Source: Thermocrinis ruber (GTDB taxonomy: Bacteria > Aquificota > Aquificia > Aquificales > Aquificaceae). Taken from it: a stretch of DNA of 64,000 nucleotides. The notes under the pieces are model-generated. The model had not been told where the DNA came from. It made no database searches and saw only the letters and a list, made by a program, of their open reading frames with translations. The stretch covers positions 1,302,001-1,366,000 of the forward strand of contig NZ_CP007028.1 of assembly GCF_000512735.1 (NCBI RefSeq). The letters run 5' to 3'. Made by a program: the position numbers and the translations under genes. Shown here piece by piece: positions 5,295-63,621 of the stretch; positions within the stretch are counted from its first letter, which is position 1; every line of letters begins with the position of its first letter.

Positions 5295-6527
5295 CATGGC
5301 AAAGGAGAAGTTTGTAAGAGAGAAGGAGCACGTAAACGTAGGAACAATAGGGCACGTAGACCACGGTAAATCTACCCTAACCTCTGCCATAACTTGTGTC
5401 CTTGCCGCAGGCGTACTGCCAGGCGGTAAAGCCAAATGCATGAAATACGAAGAAATAGACAAAGCTCCAGAAGAAAAAGAAAGAGGTATCACCATCAACA
5501 TAACCCACGTAGAGTATGAAAGTGCCAAAAGACACTACGCCCACATAGATTGCCCCGGACACGCTGACTACATAAAGAACATGATTACGGGCGCCGCTCA
5601 GATGGACGGTGCTATCCTCGTGGTATCCGCTGCCGACGGACCTATGCCCCAAACAAGGGAACACGTATTGCTCGCAAGACAGGTTAACGTTCCATACATC
5701 GTGGTCTTTATGAACAAGTGCGACATGGTAGATGACCCAGAACTTCTGGACCTGGTGGAGCTTGAAGTGAGAGAGCTTTTGAACAAATACGAATTTCCTG
5801 GAGACGATGTGCCAGTTATAAGAGGTTCTGCTTTGGGGGCTTTGCAGGAGCTGGAAGCAGGAAAGCCAGACAAGTGGTGCAATGCCATAGTGGAGCTTGT
5901 GAACGCTATGGATGAATACATACCCACACCTGTGAGGGAGTCAGATAAACCCTTCTTGATGCCTATAGAGGACGTCTTTAGCATCTCTGGTCGTGGAACG
6001 GTGGTGACAGGAAGGGTAGAAAGAGGAACCCTAAAGCCCGGTGAGGAGGTGGAGATTGTAGGACTTAGGGAAGAACCTCTGAAGACGGTGGCAACTTCTA
6101 TAGAGATGTTCAGGAAGGTTCTTGATGAAGCACTTCCTGGAGACAACATAGGTGTGCTGTTGAGGGGAGTGGGTAAGGATGACGTAGAGAGAGGTCAGGT
6201 TTTGGCAAAGCCAGGGACAGTGAAACCTCACAGGAGGTTTAGGGCACAGGTGTATATTCTCACCAAGGAAGAGGGTGGAAGACACAGTCCGTTCTTTGTC
6301 AATTACAGGCCACAGTTTTACTTTAGGACTGCGGACGTGACAGGTGTGATAGTGAAGTTGCCTGAAGGGCAGGAGATGGTAATGCCTGGGGACAATGTGG
6401 AGCTTGAGGTGGAGTTGATAAAGCCTGTAGCTATGGAGGAAGGTTTGAGGTTCGCCATAAGGGAAGGTGGTAAGACCGTCGGTGCAGGCGTCGTTACAAA
6501 AATACTTGATTGAGGTGTGAAAAATGG
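5295..6527 (+). repeat. Long direct repeat, tuf copy 1
   Basis: Read side by side, I see no difference from 22011-23243. Identity starts one base before the tuf ATG and runs 14 bases past the stop, through the ATGG of the next gene (rpmG here, rpsJ in the other copy). It breaks sharply on both sides (tagc|aaac upstream; ATGGC|ATGGA downstream). This is the pattern expected from gene conversion. Confidence 0.93.
5296..6513 (+). CDS. tuf: Elongation factor Tu (copy in tRNA-secE cluster)
   Basis: GTPase that delivers aminoacyl-tRNA to the ribosomal A site. 405 residues. G1 is GHVDHGKST at about 19-27, G3 is DCPGHADY, G4 is NKCDM and G5 is SAL; the effector region contains ERGITIN. Domains 2 and 3 follow ([13 protein letters not shown], then the barrel ending at KILD). 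A Shine-Dalgarno AGGAGG lies upstream of ATG 5296. The base sequence appears identical to the second copy at 22012-23229. By neighbourhood this is the tufB-type copy of E. coli. Its TGA overlaps the Shine-Dalgarno sequence of rpmG. Confidence 0.98.
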
Positions 6528-22010: not shown

Positions 22011-23243
22011 CATGGCAAAGGAGAAGTTTGTAAGAGAGAAGGAGCACGTAAACGTAGGAACAATAGGGCACGTAGACCACGGTAAATCTACCCTAACCTC
22101 TGCCATAACTTGTGTCCTTGCCGCAGGCGTACTGCCAGGCGGTAAAGCCAAATGCATGAAATACGAAGAAATAGACAAAGCTCCAGAAGAAAAAGAAAGA
22201 GGTATCACCATCAACATAACCCACGTAGAGTATGAAAGTGCCAAAAGACACTACGCCCACATAGATTGCCCCGGACACGCTGACTACATAAAGAACATGA
22301 TTACGGGCGCCGCTCAGATGGACGGTGCTATCCTCGTGGTATCCGCTGCCGACGGACCTATGCCCCAAACAAGGGAACACGTATTGCTCGCAAGACAGGT
22401 TAACGTTCCATACATCGTGGTCTTTATGAACAAGTGCGACATGGTAGATGACCCAGAACTTCTGGACCTGGTGGAGCTTGAAGTGAGAGAGCTTTTGAAC
22501 AAATACGAATTTCCTGGAGACGATGTGCCAGTTATAAGAGGTTCTGCTTTGGGGGCTTTGCAGGAGCTGGAAGCAGGAAAGCCAGACAAGTGGTGCAATG
22601 CCATAGTGGAGCTTGTGAACGCTATGGATGAATACATACCCACACCTGTGAGGGAGTCAGATAAACCCTTCTTGATGCCTATAGAGGACGTCTTTAGCAT
22701 CTCTGGTCGTGGAACGGTGGTGACAGGAAGGGTAGAAAGAGGAACCCTAAAGCCCGGTGAGGAGGTGGAGATTGTAGGACTTAGGGAAGAACCTCTGAAG
22801 ACGGTGGCAACTTCTATAGAGATGTTCAGGAAGGTTCTTGATGAAGCACTTCCTGGAGACAACATAGGTGTGCTGTTGAGGGGAGTGGGTAAGGATGACG
22901 TAGAGAGAGGTCAGGTTTTGGCAAAGCCAGGGACAGTGAAACCTCACAGGAGGTTTAGGGCACAGGTGTATATTCTCACCAAGGAAGAGGGTGGAAGACA
23001 CAGTCCGTTCTTTGTCAATTACAGGCCACAGTTTTACTTTAGGACTGCGGACGTGACAGGTGTGATAGTGAAGTTGCCTGAAGGGCAGGAGATGGTAATG
23101 CCTGGGGACAATGTGGAGCTTGAGGTGGAGTTGATAAAGCCTGTAGCTATGGAGGAAGGTTTGAGGTTCGCCATAAGGGAAGGTGGTAAGACCGTCGGTG
23201 CAGGCGTCGTTACAAAAATACTTGATTGAGGTGTGAAAAATGG
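22011..23243 (+). repeat. Long direct repeat, tuf copy 2
   Basis: Partner of 5295-6527, in the same orientation and about 16.7 kb away. The repeats flank secE to fusA, so a crossover would delete or tandemly duplicate the RNA polymerase genes. Confidence 0.93.
22012..23229 (+). CDS. tuf: Elongation factor Tu (copy in str operon)
   Basis: Same 405-residue protein as encoded at 5296-6513, and the same base sequence as far as I can read. Here it closes the str operon (rpsL-rpsG-fusA-tuf) with AGGAGG 6 bases upstream, and leads directly into rpsJ of the S10 cluster. Having two copies gives more EF-Tu, the most abundant cell protein, from two transcription units. The lack of silent differences implies ongoing gene conversion. 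Confidence 0.98.
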
Positions 23244-28157: not shown

Positions 28158-28447
28158 GCTGGCACACGAAAAGAAAGGAGTTTGTGGGTGTTGTTGTTAG
28201 CGACAAAATGGACAAAACGGTAGTTGTGCGTGTGGATAGAAGAGTGCCCCACCCTATATACAAAAAGCACATCATAAAGAGCAAAAAATACCACGCACAC
28301 GATCCCAACAACGAGTGCAGAGTGGGAGACGTGGTGGTCATAAGGGAAACAAGGCCCATCTCAAAAACAAAAAGATGGGTAGTAGTTAAGATCTTGCAAA
28401 GGGCTAAATCTCCAGAACTTCTTCAAGAAACTCCTCAAGAAACTTAA
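28154..28447 (+). CDS. rpsQ: 30S ribosomal protein S17
   Basis: Primary 16S rRNA binder with an OB fold. 97 residues: [49 protein letters not shown], and [15 protein letters not shown] 14-residue tail (to ETPQET) follows the usual end. This is the last ribosomal gene of the cluster: instead of rplN the next gene is a TusC-like protein sharing the TAATG. Confidence 0.97.
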
Positions 28448-28788
28448 TGCGCGTTCTATTTTTGGTAAAAGGCGACCCGTTCTCGTGGAGATGCCACGAA
28501 GCCTTAAGGGTTGCCTTGGCTTTAGGTATAAACCACGAGGTTTTTCTTGTTTTTATAAAGGATGGAGTTTATGCTCTAACCAAGTGGAAGCATGAAAAAC
28601 TCCTCATACATGGCTTTGAAAAGCTCTTGGAGAACATGGGTTATGTAAATGTTAAGCTCTTCGTGGAGGACCTCTCTGCGGAAGAGAGGGGGCTAAAAAA
28701 GGAAGACTTTGCAGTGGATGTGGAGTTTGTAAACATGGAAAGCGTAAAAGACATGTTGGCTTCCTCGGAGGCGGTTCTGGTATGGTAA
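28447..28788 (+). CDS. DsrE-family sulfur-relay protein, TusC/DsrF-like
   Basis: 113 residues with the alpha/beta DsrE/DsrF fold pattern: RVLFLVKGDPFSWRCHEALRVALAL, VFLVFIKDGVYAL, then KLFVEDLSAEERGLKKEDF, which matches the TusC pattern of a late RGL followed by a short acidic stretch. Ends SSEAVLVW. In E. coli TusBCD passes sulfur from TusA to TusE for 2-thiouridine in tRNA; in sulfur oxidisers DsrEFH and TusA-type proteins carry sulfane sulfur. The DsrE-type catalytic Cys is not expected in a TusC subunit and is not obvious here. It overlaps rpsQ by one base and the next gene by 7. Confidence 0.72.
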   Translation: MRVLFLVKGDPFSWRCHEALRVALALGINHEVFLVFIKDGVYALTKWKHEKLLIHGFEKLLENMGYVNVKLFVEDLSAEERGLKKEDFAVDVEFVNMESVKDMLASSEAVLVW

Positions 28789-29021
28789 AGACCCTGTGGT
28801 TGGTTAGAAAGTTGGGGGACTTCAGCTCCGACTTGGTGGGAGAGGATGATATTGTGGTGTTGATTCAGGACGCGGTGCTTAGGTTTCCATACAAGAGAAA
28901 CTGGTATGCTTGCAAAGAGGATGTGGAAGCTAGAGGACTGAAGGTAAGCCCAGATAAGTTAAAGTCTTACGAGGATATTGCAGAGCTCATTCTTACAGCA
29001 CAAAAGGTGGTCGTCTGGTAG
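28782..29021 (+). CDS. TusB/DsrH-like sulfur-relay protein
   Basis: 79 residues (E. coli TusB 95). KTLWLVRKLGDFSSDLV, then DDIVVLIQDAVLRF, NWYACKEDVEARGL and a C-terminal KVVVW match the DsrH/TusB outline (QDGV-type motif, RGL, terminal aromatic). One Cys (about residue 44) sits in the region before RGL. Together with the preceding gene it gives the C and B subunits of a TusBCD-like complex; the D subunit is not in this window. The stop TAG directly precedes the TATAAT of the next gene. Confidence 0.7.
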   Translation: MVKTLWLVRKLGDFSSDLVGEDDIVVLIQDAVLRFPYKRNWYACKEDVEARGLKVSPDKLKSYEDIAELILTAQKVVVW

Positions 29022-34163: not shown

Positions 34164-34619
34164 TTACTTCTCTGCGTAGGTTTCCTTTACTTCCTTTGCT
34201 TTCTTTGCCATTTCTGGGTCGTATGCTTTCCCTTGCCAAAGAACCTGATAGACAACCTCAAAGGTGCTCTCCGCCAACTCGGTTAATTCCTTAAAGAGCT
34301 GGTTGAACCTTTCGCTTCTGTGGGATTCCTCGTGGTCCTCAAGGCTTCTCCAGAAGGTTATTATGAGGACTTCCCTCTCCTTTAGAGGATGTTCGGTGAC
34401 TTGTCCAGCAGTGGAGCCCTCGAGGGAAACACCACCTGTATTAAGGGCAACAAAGCCTCCGTAAAAGCCCGTGTCTGAGTGGTACGTCTTAACATGCTCG
34501 CAGAGGTAAGCAACCTTTTCAGCTACATCGTCAAGGGTTACACCCTCCTTGAGCACTACATAATTTATGTTCATAATGGCATCCTCTGGAATATCTACGA
34601 TCCTATTTGCTCCAAACAT
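34164..34619 (-). CDS. Half-size sulfur oxygenase reductase (SOR)-like protein
   Basis: 151 residues. I chose ATG 34619, preceded by AGGAGGTG 5 bases upstream; the longer reading crosses the promoter. Residues 87-100 (IITFWRSLEDHEESH) match the SOR block TFWKDWKDHEEMH as I recall it from Acidianus. H96 and H100 would match iron ligands His86 and His90, E121 (STFEVVY) would match Glu114, and C40 would match the essential Cys31; Cys-to-His spacing is 56 here against 55. Cys101 and Cys104 have no counterpart. SOR (about 310 residues) has two fused ferredoxin-like halves; only the N-terminal, iron-bearing half is present. It could be a true sulfur-handling oxygenase or another ABM-fold iron protein. 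A palindrome overlaps its promoter. Confidence 0.65.
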   Translation of the reverse strand: MFGANRIVDIPEDAIMNINYVVLKEGVTLDDVAEKVAYLCEHVKTYHSDTGFYGGFVALNTGGVSLEGSTAGQVTEHPLKEREVLIITFWRSLEDHEESHRSERFNQLFKELTELAESTFEVVYQVLWQGKAYDPEMAKKAKEVKETYAEK

Positions 34620-34647
34620 AGCACACCTCCTAAGGGGATTTAATATA

Positions 34648-34665: not shown

Positions 34666-34705
34666 AAATATCTTAATTTGCAAGGGTGTTGTGTCTCTTC
34701 AGAGG

Positions 34706-59933: not shown

Positions 59934-62036
59934 ATGGCTGAATATTCCCTTGAGGAGAAGGATATTATAAAAGCCCTCAGCAAAAAGCCTATGCACTTTA
60001 ACGAGCTTGCCCACCTTTTTTCCTTGGACAAAAAGGGTAGAAAAGCGTTGAAAAAACTGCTAAAAAAGCTAAAAAAAGAGGGAACTATTATAGTGGAGGG
60101 CGGAAGGTATAGGTTGGTACAGGAGGAGGTAGTGATAGGCACAGTTTTGGCAAATCCCAACGGCTTTGGCTTTCTTGAGGTGGGAGAAGGTAAAAAGGAT
60201 ATATACATACCACCCTTTGAGATGGAAAAGCTTTTACACGGAGACAGGATAAAGGCTAAGGTGGTGGAATTCAAAGGCAAAAAGGAAATAAGGGTGCTAA
60301 AGGTCCTAAAGAGGGGCACAAAGGAGCTGGTCTGTTCTGTAAAAAAAGAAAAGGGACAGTGTGTGGGAATTCCCTTGGACCAGAACGGCTTTCATAGGGT
60401 CTTTCTGCCAAAGGACACCTGCAAAGGGTTAAAGGAAGGCACCGTAGTATTGGCAGAAATTGTAAGGTACCCTTCCAAAGAAAGCCCAATGTTGGGCAAA
60501 GTTAAAAAGGTCCTTGGGCATCCGGCAGAAAAGAACCTTATTGTGGATATAATCATCCACAAGTATAAGCTACCTCTGGATTATGAACCGGAAGCCCTAA
60601 AAGAAGCCCAAAGCCTCTCCATAGATTGGGAGAAGGAGCTCAAGAGGAGGAGGGACCTGCGGGATCAGATATGCTTTACCATAGACCCACCTAGGGCGAG
60701 GGACTTTGACGATGCGGTTGCCATAGAAAAAACGCCCGAGGGGAACTACCGCCTTTGGGTGCATATAGCAGATGTGTCTTACTTTGTGAAGGAGGGTTCT
60801 GCCCTTGACAAAAGCGCCTTTGAGAGGGGCTTTACCTTTTATCTGCCCGACAGGGCAATTCACATGCTACCGGAGAGGCTCTCTGCGGACCTTTGCAGTC
60901 TAAAGCCCAATGAGGACAAGCTTGCCTTTACCTGTGAGATGGTCTTTAGCCCAAAGGGGGACCTGCTTTGGTATGACATCTACGAGAGCGTAATAAGGAG
61001 CAAGACAAGGCTAACGTATGATGAAGCCCTCCGACTTATCGTAGGAGACCCAGTCCTTGAGAAAAAGTATCAAGACCTTGTAGAACCACTTAGAATCATG
61101 GAGGACTTATACAGAATTCTCTCTTACAGAAGGTGGGAGAGGGGTAGCATAGACTTTGACCTACCAGAGGCAGAGCTGATCGTGGATGAGTATGGGGAAC
61201 CTACCGCCATAGTACCCTATGAGCGCCACATAGCCCACCGAATTATAGAGCACTTTATGATCTCCGCCAACGAAACGGTGGCAAAGCATCTTACCAGCGT
61301 AGGATATCCCTGCCTTTACAGGATTCATGAAAAGCCAGACCCTAAAAAGGTGGAAAATCTACTGGAGATACTGGAGGGACTTGGCTACAAAGTTAAAAGG
61401 TTTTCCCTTGAGCCCAAGTTTTTCCAAAAAATCATAGAGGACTTTGAAGGTAGGGATGAAGAGCACTTGGTTAGATTTTTGACCTTGCGTAGTATGATGA
61501 AGGCAAGGTATTCTCCACACAATTTGGGACACTTCGGACTTGCCAGCGACGGATACACACACTTTACCTCCCCCATAAGAAGGTATGCGGACCTGGTGGT
61601 TCATAGGCTTTTGAAAAAAGCCCTCAGAGGAGAAAGCATAGACTACGAACAGACGGTTAGCTACTTGGAAATGGTGGGAGAGCACCTTTCCCTACAAGAG
61701 GAGTTGGCGGAGGATGTGGAAAGGGAAGCCATAGACCGGTTAAAAGTTAGGTTCATGAAGGCACACATAGGGGAGGAGTTTGAGGCCATAATAACGGGTG
61801 TGGTATCCTTTGGCTTTTTTGTGGAGCTTAAAGATTACTTGGTGGAGGGTTTAGTAAGCGTGTCCTCTTTGGAGGAGGATGAATACATATACGACGAAAA
61901 AGCCCACCGGCTTGTGGGCTACAGAACGGGTAAAATCTATCGTCTGGGGGACAAGGTTAGGGTAAAGTTAGTATCGGTGGATGAAGAGAGGGGTAGGCTA
62001 AGCTTTGTCTTGGCAGAGGCTCAAAAGCCCTCGTAA
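59934..62036 (+). CDS. rnr: Ribonuclease R
   Basis: Processive 3'-5' exoribonuclease that digests structured RNA. 700 residues. N-terminal winged helix (about 1-65, FNELAHLFSLDKKGRKALKKL), cold-shock OB domains (GTVLANPNGFGFLEVG), RNB catalytic domain with PPRARDFDDAVAIEKTP and the Asp cluster, GHFGLASDGYTHFTSPIRRYADLVVHR, and a C-terminal S1 domain (FEAIITGVVSFGFFVELKDY). The long Lys-rich tail of E. coli RNase R is absent. The 3' end overlaps the dehydrogenase by 16 bases. Confidence 0.95.
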   Translation: MAEYSLEEKDIIKALSKKPMHFNELAHLFSLDKKGRKALKKLLKKLKKEGTIIVEGGRYRLVQEEVVIGTVLANPNGFGFLEVGEGKKDIYIPPFEMEKLLHGDRIKAKVVEFKGKKEIRVLKVLKRGTKELVCSVKKEKGQCVGIPLDQNGFHRVFLPKDTCKGLKEGTVVLAEIVRYPSKESPMLGKVKKVLGHPAEKNLIVDIIIHKYKLPLDYEPEALKEAQSLSIDWEKELKRRRDLRDQICFTIDPPRARDFDDAVAIEKTPEGNYRLWVHIADVSYFVKEGSALDKSAFERGFTFYLPDRAIHMLPERLSADLCSLKPNEDKLAFTCEMVFSPKGDLLWYDIYESVIRSKTRLTYDEALRLIVGDPVLEKKYQDLVEPLRIMEDLYRILSYRRWERGSIDFDLPEAELIVDEYGEPTAIVPYERHIAHRIIEHFMISANETVAKHLTSVGYPCLYRIHEKPDPKKVENLLEILEGLGYKVKRFSLEPKFFQKIIEDFEGRDEEHLVRFLTLRSMMKARYSPHNLGHFGLASDGYTHFTSPIRRYADLVVHRLLKKALRGESIDYEQTVSYLEMVGEHLSLQEELAEDVEREAIDRLKVRFMKAHIGEEFEAIITGVVSFGFFVELKDYLVEGLVSVSSLEEDEYIYDEKAHRLVGYRTGKIYRLGDKVRVKLVSVDEERGRLSFVLAEAQKPS

Positions 62037-63181
62037 GCTTTTACGTAGAGCTCGTATATGTCTTCCACGGTGGGCTCCACCGGGTTTATGGGAAAGAGTC
62101 CTCTGGAGAGCATATAGGTATCTTCTGTTAGCCTCTCTAACTTTTCCTTTTCCACACCAAGCTCTTTGAGAGAAACCCTCAATCCCACCTTTTCCAAGAG
62201 CTCAACGACCGCATCCACAGCCTTTTCTGGCTTTGGTTCGTAGCCCATAATCTCTGCAAAGAGGGCGTACTTTTGTGGGTTCCCTTTGTAGTTGAAGGCG
62301 GTTATTGCCGGGGCAAGCGCTGCAAGTCCCTCCGCGTGGGCCACATTCGGATAGTGGGCGGAAACTGGGTGTTCCATGCCGTGTATTAGGGCTACCCTCT
62401 TTTTGTCTATGGCTATGCCCGCCAGCATGGACGCATAGCTCATCCACTCCCTTGCGGTTAAGTTCTCCGGCTCGTTAACCGCCACCGGTAGCCATTCTTT
62501 TATGATCCTTAGGGCCCTTATTGCCAAGTCATCTGCAAAGATGTTTTCCACCTTATTGGTAAGGGATTCAAGGGCATGGACAAAGGCATCCACTCCCGTG
62601 ATGGCGGTTAGCCTTGGGCTCATGGAAAGGGTCAGGGTTGGGTCTATGATGGCAACCTTTGGATAGTTCAGGGAGTGGGAGATCACCAGCTTTTCCTTTC
62701 TCTTTGGGTTTGATATAACCGAGTATCTGTTTACCTCACTACCCGTGCCCGCGGTGGTTGGTATGCATATTACCGGTCTGTTGAGGTAGGGAATGAGCCT
62801 GGGACCTTCTGGATAATTCACATAATCCCATGCGTAGCCCTCGTTGGAAGAAACAATGGAAACCGCTTTGGCGGTGTCTAAGGCACTTCCGCCTCCCAAG
62901 CCCACTATGTAGTCTATTTTGTTTTCCACCACTATGGCGCTCGCTTCATTTACCATTTGATCGGTAGGGTTGGGCTCCACCCGGTCGTAAAGGATCACCT
63001 CCTCCGCACCCCATTTTTTAAGGGAACGAATAGCCCTATCTAAAGCTCCGTTTTCTTTGGTGCTGTTTTTACCTGTTATGATTATTGCCCTGTAGCCGTA
63101 CCTTTTGGCAACCTCTCCTAAGGTGTATAGCCTTCCACTCCCAAAGAGAACCTCAACAGGGAGGTAAAAATCAAACTTCAT
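62021..63181 (-). CDS. Iron-containing alcohol dehydrogenase
   Basis: 386 residues, group III NAD(P)-dependent dehydrogenase. LGGGSALDTAKAVSIV binds the nucleotide; IPTTAGTGSEVNRYSVI; GVDAFVHALESLTN gives two metal ligands (Asp, His); ALIHGMEHPVSAHYPNVAHAEGLA gives the other two His. The usual HPLGA motif is altered to HPVSAHYP. In anaerobic fermenters such enzymes are butanol or ethanol dehydrogenases; the substrate here is unknown. Starts within the DksA-like gene stop (ATGA), so they are coupled. Confidence 0.88.
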   Translation of the reverse strand: MKFDFYLPVEVLFGSGRLYTLGEVAKRYGYRAIIITGKNSTKENGALDRAIRSLKKWGAEEVILYDRVEPNPTDQMVNEASAIVVENKIDYIVGLGGGSALDTAKAVSIVSSNEGYAWDYVNYPEGPRLIPYLNRPVICIPTTAGTGSEVNRYSVISNPKRKEKLVISHSLNYPKVAIIDPTLTLSMSPRLTAITGVDAFVHALESLTNKVENIFADDLAIRALRIIKEWLPVAVNEPENLTAREWMSYASMLAGIAIDKKRVALIHGMEHPVSAHYPNVAHAEGLAALAPAITAFNYKGNPQKYALFAEIMGYEPKPEKAVDAVVELLEKVGLRVSLKELGVEKEKLERLTEDTYMLSRGLFPINPVEPTVEDIYELYVKAYEGF

Positions 63182-63621
63182 GCTTCTGTGATATCTTCCC
63201 TCTGAATCTCCATCTCCTCCGGCAGTGTACCTTCAAAAATAAGTGGTGTATAGGTAGGCACTATACCTTCTTCCTCCGCTTTTTCTGCGCAGACCGCATG
63301 GTATCTAGTCCAAGGTATAGCTAACAGTCTCTCATACTCTATGTACTCTCCGCAATACTCGCATACACCGTAGGTGCCCGCTTGAAGCTTTTGTAGTGCA
63401 TAGTCTATCTCCCTTATCACGAACATCTCCCTTGAGGAAAGGTTGTCAAGGACCTCTTGGGTGTAAGTCATCTGGCTTATGTCCTCTTGGTCCCCCGGTT
63501 CCCTTATCTGCTCTCCAATCTTACTCTGCGTGTCTTCAATTTTTCTGAACCTTTCCAAAAGCTTTGCCTTTTCTTCTTCAAGTCTTTCTTTCAAAACCTT
63601 TAACTGTTCTGGTGTTAGCAT
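63178..63621 (-). CDS. DksA/TraR-family zinc-finger protein
   Basis: 147 residues. N-terminal coiled coil (about 1-75, LTPEQLKVLKERLEEEKAKLLERF), then GVCEYCGEYIEYERLLAIPWTRYHAVC, a CX2C...HX2C-type zinc finger near 87-112. Known DksA enters the RNA polymerase secondary channel and acts with ppGpp. The coiled-coil tip DA/DD motif of E. coli DksA is not obvious, so it may be a general TraR-like or DksA-like regulator. A 35-residue tail follows the finger. Shine-Dalgarno AAGGAGG upstream. Confidence 0.85.
   Translation of the reverse strand: MLTPEQLKVLKERLEEEKAKLLERFRKIEDTQSKIGEQIREPGDQEDISQMTYTQEVLDNLSSREMFVIREIDYALQKLQAGTYGVCEYCGEYIEYERLLAIPWTRYHAVCAEKAEEEGIVPTYTPLIFEGTLPEEMEIQREDITEA

What the first reader, a model, noticed from the sequence alone, without database searches (positions are those of the whole stretch)
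34164..34619. Half-size sulfur oxygenase reductase with the whole iron/cysteine active site
The 151-residue protein keeps TFWRSLEDHEESH-type sequence around H96 and H100, E121 in a FEVVY context, and C40 at nearly the same distance as in SOR (56 against 55 residues to the first His). These correspond to Cys31, His86, His90 and Glu114 of Acidianus SOR as I recall it. The entire second half of SOR is missing, and so are Cys101 and Cys104. Known SOR assembles as a 24-mer of a two-domain subunit; a one-domain form could be an ancestor, a simplified enzyme or a sensor. With TusC/TusB-like and LbpA-like genes nearby, a role in sulfur chemistry is plausible. The alignment was made from memory.
Basis: partly seen in the sequence, partly recalled or inferred. 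Interest (0 to 1): 0.75.

Follow-up and report, generated by a model that had tools for sequence, protein, structure and literature searches.

The report
Single-domain relatives of sulfur oxygenase reductase
A small protein of hot-spring bacteria carries, in half the length, what look like the iron and cysteine residues of a known sulfur-oxidising enzyme, and its relatives turned up on uncultivated bacteriophage contigs and fused to a sulfur-transfer domain, so it may be a minimal sulfur-oxidising enzyme and a cousin of the large one's ancestor.

Summary
The gene is real: minus strand, ATG at 34619, ribosome site in front, purifying selection, found in 37 of 136 Aquificota genomes searched, all in the window's own family. 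It is not a SOR by curated cut-off (Pfam SOR 21.8 bits against 25) and lacks SOR's second domain and Cys101/Cys104. Of the profiles compared it matches the SOR N-terminal domain best (E 2.4e-7) and links SOR to the ABM family, which do not match each other. His96, His100 and Glu121 align with SOR's iron ligands His86, His90 and Glu114; Cys40 with Cys31 in one method, one residue off in another. All four residues are invariant in 53 aligned members. In the phages the gene often lies near iron-sulfur assembly or iron-oxygenase genes. Most likely a small non-heme-iron enzyme that oxygenates Cys-bound sulfane sulfur; iron, substrate and product are inferred, not shown. TusB/C-like and LbpA-like genes near the window gene carry little weight.

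The parts
34164..34619 (-). Gene of the single-domain SOR-like protein, 151 aa, stop included
34626..34631 (-). Shine-Dalgarno-like AGGAGG in front of the ATG
   Evidence: sequence printed
34500..34502 (-). Codon of Cys40 (candidate equivalent of SOR Cys31)
34332..34334 (-). Codon of His96 (equivalent of SOR iron ligand His86 by alignment)
34320..34322 (-). Codon of His100 (equivalent of SOR iron ligand His90 by alignment)
34257..34259 (-). Codon of Glu121 (equivalent of SOR iron ligand Glu114 by alignment)

Best explanation
A single-domain protein of the ABM-like (dimeric alpha-beta-barrel) fold class on the SOR side of that superfamily. Inferred working: two copies pair into a barrel; each holds one Fe(II) through His96, His100 and Glu121; Cys40 carries a sulfane sulfur atom as a persulfide next to the iron; O2 at the iron oxygenates that sulfur, giving sulfite. 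It would be a minimal persulfide/sulfur oxygenase without the sealed 24-subunit chamber of SOR, so it probably takes soluble or protein-delivered persulfide (as from a rhodanese) rather than bulk sulfur. Shown by computation: gene, conservation, monomer fold class, relation to the SOR N-domain, invariance of the four residues, rhodanese fusion, occurrence on phage contigs. Inferred: iron, dimer, substrate, product.
For: All 25 rows of A1 hit Pfam SOR (best E 8.2e-5); 24 of 25 hit ABM, more weakly (best 4.3e-4). Profile-profile: cellular family vs SOR N-domain E 2.4e-7, 8.6e-8 with a fifth SOR added; ABM vs SOR-N 0.12. Counted from the conserved Trp, His at +6 and +10 in 25 of 25 short, 4 of 4 SOR-N, 0 of 4 SOR-C and 0 of 28 ABM rows; the 28 ABM rows have His at +19 (28 of 30 ABM loci extracted). 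28 of 28 distinct complete viral proteins keep His/His, Cys and Glu. Single-domain rows and SOR-N together against ABM and SOR-C, 96/88 (41 rows). Two rhodanese fusions keep His/His, a Cys and a Glu (sequences; domains); persulfide dioxygenases of another fold are also fused to rhodanese (PMC6060420, found passages). In SOR, mutants of the iron ligands and of Cys31 showed no activity, those of Cys101 and Cys104 kept about a tenth (PMC7398979, found passages). Phage copies lie within 2 kb of an A-type Fe-S carrier cluster in 11 of 35 loci and of IscU-like genes in 4 of 35 (representatives in Pfam). A DsrE-like gene follows the cellular gene in L015, L016 and L060 (Pfam on the L016 copy).
Against: No SOR curated cut-off is reached. 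None of 4 viral members scanned hits Pfam SOR at E up to 0.1, and the viral profile matches SOR-N only weakly (E 1.2e-4). Cys40 sits one column off Cys31 in MAFFT, and Cys to the next conserved Gly is 11 residues against 8 in SOR. A Glu in the last strand also occurs in ABM rows by eye, so it does not discriminate. Foldseek and VIA lists are led by ABM-like proteins; SOR appears in 1 of 4 lists (top 50 shown), at ranks 34 and 45, through its C-terminal half. No operon is shared across the cellular family, and phage neighbours include general iron oxygenases. hhalign E-values come from one-on-one comparisons of shallow profiles: they rank rather than calibrate.
Confidence: 0.5

Rival explanations
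1. A non-heme-iron oxygenase of the same fold that acts on an organic substrate, not on sulfur; Cys40 is structural or binds substrate.
For: In the phage loci the gene is adjacent to a ring-hydroxylating-dioxygenase cluster in 7 of 35 (3 of its members checked in Pfam) and within 2 kb of 2OG-Fe(II)-oxygenase-like genes in 8 of 35 (one of the three clusters is just under Pfam's cut-off). No shared sulfur operon in Aquificaceae.
Against: Rhodanese fusions and invariance of Cys40.
Confidence: 0.2
2. An iron- or persulfide-binding sensor or carrier (for example in Fe-S assembly) rather than an enzyme.
For: A-type carrier or IscU-like genes near phage copies.
Against: The residues whose loss abolishes SOR activity have invariant counterparts; no output domain in 151 residues.
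Confidence: 0.15
3. An ordinary ABM protein (cofactor-free or haem-binding) in which the HxxxH is coincidence.
For: ABM hit E 0.0019; ABM-like folds lead the structure lists; 30-column profile match to Aquificota ABM proteins, E 4e-5.
Against: 0 of 28 ABM rows have the two His, and all 28 have the +19 His that the short family lacks; the SOR-N match covers 101 columns.
Confidence: 0.1
4. A relic of a full SOR that lost its second domain.
For: A full SOR exists in the phylum (G001).
Against: SOR-N rows form one clade without the short rows (90/95, 100/99); 24% identity in the SOR-N alignment; 1 of 136 Aquificota genomes has SOR over cut-off.
Confidence: 0.05

Closest known systems
Sulfur oxygenase reductase (SOR; PF07682, NF047630)
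   Same: N-domain similarity over about 100 columns; His86/His90/Glu114 equivalents; probable Cys31 equivalent
   Different: One domain instead of two; no Cys101/Cys104; below curated cut-offs; a 24-mer sphere is not expected (inference)
ABM / dimeric alpha-beta-barrel proteins (PF03992)
   Same: Size and monomer fold; similar segment around the conserved Trp
   Different: No His at Trp+6/+10; the ABM His at Trp+19 is absent in the short family
Persulfide dioxygenase (ETHE1 type) and its rhodanese fusions
   Same: Mononuclear 2-His-1-carboxylate iron site, and fusion to rhodanese (PMC6060420, found passages)
   Different: Metallo-beta-lactamase superfamily there, said in that paper to be unrelated to SOR

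Membership tests
SOR (PF07682 / NF047630) | Score over the curated cut-off | tested here: not met
   21.8 bits against 25; 19.7 against 400
SOR (PF07682 / NF047630) | Iron ligands His86, His90, Glu114 | tested here: met
   By alignment only: 3 of 3 MAFFT modes; His/His spacing in 25 of 25 rows; iron binding not tested
SOR (PF07682 / NF047630) | Essential Cys31 | tested here: inconclusive
   C40 invariant in 53 rows, on Cys31 by hhalign, one column off by MAFFT
SOR (PF07682 / NF047630) | Two-domain subunit of about 300 residues | tested here: not met
   151 residues, then a stop codon
SOR (PF07682 / NF047630) | Pocket cysteines 101 and 104 | tested here: not met
   Absent in the alignment
SOR (PF07682 / NF047630) | 24-mer hollow sphere and O2-dependent sulfur disproportionation | not testable with these tools
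   needs protein
ABM (PF03992) | Score over the curated cut-off | tested here: not met
   18.7 bits against 23.1
ABM (PF03992) | Beta-alpha-beta-beta-alpha-beta monomer fold | tested here: met
   Models of mean pLDDT 67.4 and 70.7; VIA best row Z 13.4, rmsd 1.9, 96 aligned; dimer not tested
ABM (PF03992) | His 19 residues after the conserved Trp, as in Aquificota ABM proteins | tested here: not met
   Phe in 25 of 25 short rows, His in 28 of 28 ABM rows
IsdG-type haem oxygenase | Asn/Trp/His catalytic triad (recalled) | not tested
   no IsdG sequence was fetched; IsdG and IsdI only appear as fold matches

The most novel reading that the evidence does not exclude
Probability: 0.35. Interest if true: 0.85.

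Novelty: new variant of a known kind. Interest (0 to 1): 0.7.

Why it matters
SOR oxidises and reduces sulfur with O2 in one protein, and how its two-domain subunit and its iron site arose inside a mostly metal-free fold is, as far as I recall, open. A single-domain family that matches both ABM and SOR-N, with a fusion form that matches both SOR halves, makes that origin testable with small proteins. Phage copies would add an iron oxygenase, possibly a sulfur-oxidation step, to what phages carry.

Tried and rejected
Sulfur neighbours as evidence: given little weight. The DsrE/DsrH-like and LbpA-like genes of the window are distant, and LbpA-like genes (74 of 136 genomes; 60 of the family's 64) and SoxB (84 of 136; 56 of 64) are so common in the family that co-occurrence tells nothing (family counts are mine from the rows). 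The DsrE-like gene downstream in L015, L016 and L060 is a point for a sulfur role that I could not follow.

SOR was not among the 50 rows shown for model 1 or by Foldseek for model 2; VIA for model 2 lists 6qpa (Z 10.1, rmsd 3.1, 122 aligned) and 2cb2 (Z 9.9, rmsd 3.6, 126 aligned), both through the C-terminal half, not the N-terminal half that the sequence points to.

PDB sequence searches with P0001 and A1 ranked designer repeat proteins first, and with A1 triosephosphate isomerases above all SOR chains but one; the designer-protein scores are sums over repeats. These searches alone would not have made the case.

The viral scan with A1 gave none; plasmids gave none for P0001, SOR or the fusion; a viral scan with the G001 SOR gave none; named phages gave none for two viral members; PHROGs gave none for six proteins at E up to 0.01. 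A truncated-SOR origin was considered and rejected. The L017 hit is a 31-residue match inside an unrelated-looking protein.

Literature: ten searches listed no paper that, by title and the start of the abstract, describes a single-domain SOR, a phage SOR or a rhodanese-SOR fusion. One search showed 25 of 62 papers; only open-licence PMC is held. Found passages, not whole texts, of PMC7398979, PMC7692377 and PMC6060420 were seen; in PMC7692377 the only mention of SOR is in its reference list.

Full report
What is there. The ORF lies on the minus strand of the window (34619 to 34164 with its stop), begins with ATG behind AGGAGG, and is divergent from an ABC-transporter ATPase gene that starts at 34678 or later. 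The genome is one contig of 1.52 Mb; the closest named relatives are Thermocrinis MAGs.

Spread. A protein search found it in 36 of 136 Aquificota genomes, a profile search in 37 of 136: 33 full-length and 4 in pieces. All 37 are in the window's family (f1), of which 64 genomes are held. Presence there is patchy: near-complete genomes such as G052 and G029 lack it. One further copy lies in a Spirochaetia MAG (L013, 58% identity), the only one in 198 genomes sampled from that genome's phylum. A neighbouring gene there (a glycine dehydrogenase subunit by eye) has its best other match in that phylum at 593 bits (100 genomes) and in the Aquificaceae family at 485 bits (64 genomes), so a transfer is more likely than a binning error. 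In G001 the short gene is broken by a frameshift (two overlapping pieces). Synonymous change far exceeds non-synonymous change in four pairs.

Relation to SOR. The protein scores 21.8 bits with Pfam SOR (cut-off 25) and 18.7 with ABM (cut-off 23.1). All 25 rows of alignment A1 (25 of the 34 full-length copies then known) hit SOR. Profile comparison gives E 2.4e-7 over 101 columns for the SOR N-domain, 0.18 for the C-domain, and 0.0015 between the two SOR domains. Against 14 Aquificota ABM proteins it gives 4e-5 over 30 columns, and ABM against SOR-N gives 0.11. The short family thus links two families that do not match each other here. Counting from the conserved Trp, His at +6 and +10 is found in 25 of 25 short rows and 4 of 4 SOR-N rows and in none of 4 SOR-C and 28 ABM rows; the ABM rows have His at +19 instead (two of 30 ABM loci were not extracted).

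Fold. Two AlphaFold models, of the window protein and of L016, have the strand-helix-strand-strand-helix-strand order, with Cys in the first long helix, the first His in the second helix, the second His in or just after it, and the Glu in or next to the last strand. Confidence is middling. Structure lists are led by ABM-like proteins; SOR is in one of the four lists.

A wider family. A weak profile hit in 1 of 297 genomes of another phylum (L116; that search was centred on the genome of L017, titled Deltaproteobacteria) proved to be a 197-residue protein: rhodanese (Pfam E 2.3e-9) followed by one ABM/SOR-like domain (ABM 1.8e-5, over its cut-off; SOR 3.9e-4, under its cut-off). Alone against the PDB, that domain has SOR chains as its first 11 of 14 hits; one alignment with 6qpa spans the Cys, both His and the Glu, though the E-values are modest (best 8.8e-4). 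A search of 396 relatives matched 3: itself, a second fusion (L119) and a protein that reads as a normal SOR (L120). A scan of IMG/VR with a profile including the fusion gave 16 contigs and a second, with a cellular-plus-viral profile, 35; a third gave 22. The 16 and the 22 are all among the 35 contigs. These encode 29 distinct proteins; 28 are complete and all 28 have the Cys, both His and the Glu; the other is cut by a contig end. Viral and cellular profiles match at 6.7e-30.

In the 53-row alignment of 25 cellular and 28 viral rows, 26 columns are invariant (121 columns are filled in at least 90% of rows), among them C40, H96, H100 and E121. The two fusion rows were not in that count; MAFFT aligned the Cys of L116 with C40, but not those of L116 and L119. 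The fusion domain matches SOR-N (2.3e-5), SOR-C (3.8e-6) and ABM (3.5e-6); the family as a whole matches SOR-N (1.2e-8), ABM (1.6e-5, 30 columns) and SOR-C (0.007). A tree of 41 rows (12 of 25 cellular, 10 of 28 viral, 2 fusions, 5 SOR-N, 5 SOR-C, 7 of 14 ABM) separates single-domain rows and SOR-N from ABM and SOR-C (96/88), with SOR-N as one clade (100/99). Branches are long, the program warns of long branches meeting, and the shared motif drives part of this. I read it as fitting, not proving, that the single-domain form is older than the two-domain SOR.

Context. Of 24 cellular loci compared, 8 have DksA-like and iron-ADH genes just before the gene (Pfam); L015, L016 and L060 have a DsrE-like gene downstream; otherwise neighbours vary. 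On the viral side, proteins of L140, L142, L153, L158, L159 and L163 match PHROGs for tail tube cap, baseplate wedge, DNA polymerase, DNA end protector, single-strand DNA binding protein and ribonucleotide reductase; 'T4-type' is my reading of this set. The single-strand-binding cluster is in 11 of 35 loci and the wedge cluster in 8 of 35. The gene lies within 2 kb of an A-type Fe-S carrier cluster in 11 of 35 loci and of an IscU-like cluster in 4 of 35; a ring-hydroxylating-dioxygenase cluster is adjacent in 7 of 35; 2OG-Fe(II)-oxygenase-like genes lie within 2 kb in 8 of 35 (only representatives were scanned). Many of these loci are close relatives, so the counts are not independent, and I ran no control for how often such genes lie near other phage genes. 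PHROGs already holds NifU-like phage proteins.

Mechanism. In SOR of Sulfurisphaera the mutants H86A, H90A, E114A and C31A had no detected activity, while C101A and C104A kept about a tenth (PMC7398979, found passages). The short family keeps the indispensable set, if C40 is Cys31, and lacks the other two. Its fusion to rhodanese parallels the known fusions of persulfide dioxygenases to rhodanese (PMC6060420, found passages). I therefore favour a small non-heme-iron enzyme that oxygenates Cys-bound sulfane sulfur. Iron, dimer, substrate and product are inference. The main rival is an iron oxygenase for an organic substrate, which the phage neighbours would suit.

Verdict. Not a member of SOR by its definition, but on the SOR side by several tests, and probably working like it. 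A new variant of a known kind, of real interest because it links SOR, ABM, rhodanese fusions and phages, and because the searches listed above showed no description of it.

Noticed in passing
   Followed up: partly
L121-L167 (35 IMG/VR contigs): Viral copies of the family; in some loci beside IscU-like, A-type Fe-S carrier, Rieske-type and 2OG-Fe(II)-oxygenase-like genes.
   Followed up: partly
L016:8565-9092 (+), L060:7795-8319 (-), L015:5480-6004 (+): DsrE-like gene with a twin-arginine-like start (by eye) downstream of the short gene in three loci.
   Followed up: partly
L135:2357-3391 (+): Caspase-like protein (by eye) on a 110-kb IMG/VR contig that also carries IscU-like and A-type carrier genes.
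   Followed up: no
L149:2713-8073 (+): ORF of 1786 aa that begins like the ring-hydroxylating-dioxygenase cluster; the rest was not identified.
   Followed up: no
L058:6054-6502 (-): The short gene in G001 (probably Aquifex aeolicus) is frameshifted; the same genome is the only one of 136 with SOR over the cut-off.
   Followed up: partly
L059:7181-9762, L061:7981-10515, window 62021-63621: DksA-like and iron-ADH genes directly precede the short gene in 8 of 24 loci; in the window the same pair lies about 27 kb away. An iron-ADH-like gene (by eye) also lies near the rhodanese fusion in G401 (L117:299-1462).
   Followed up: partly
window 5296-6513 and 22012-23229: Two copies of what reads as the elongation factor Tu gene.
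   Followed up: no
window 28447-29021: DsrE-like and DsrH-like genes between the ribosomal protein genes and a succinate dehydrogenase/fumarate reductase-like gene (the flanks by eye).
   Followed up: no
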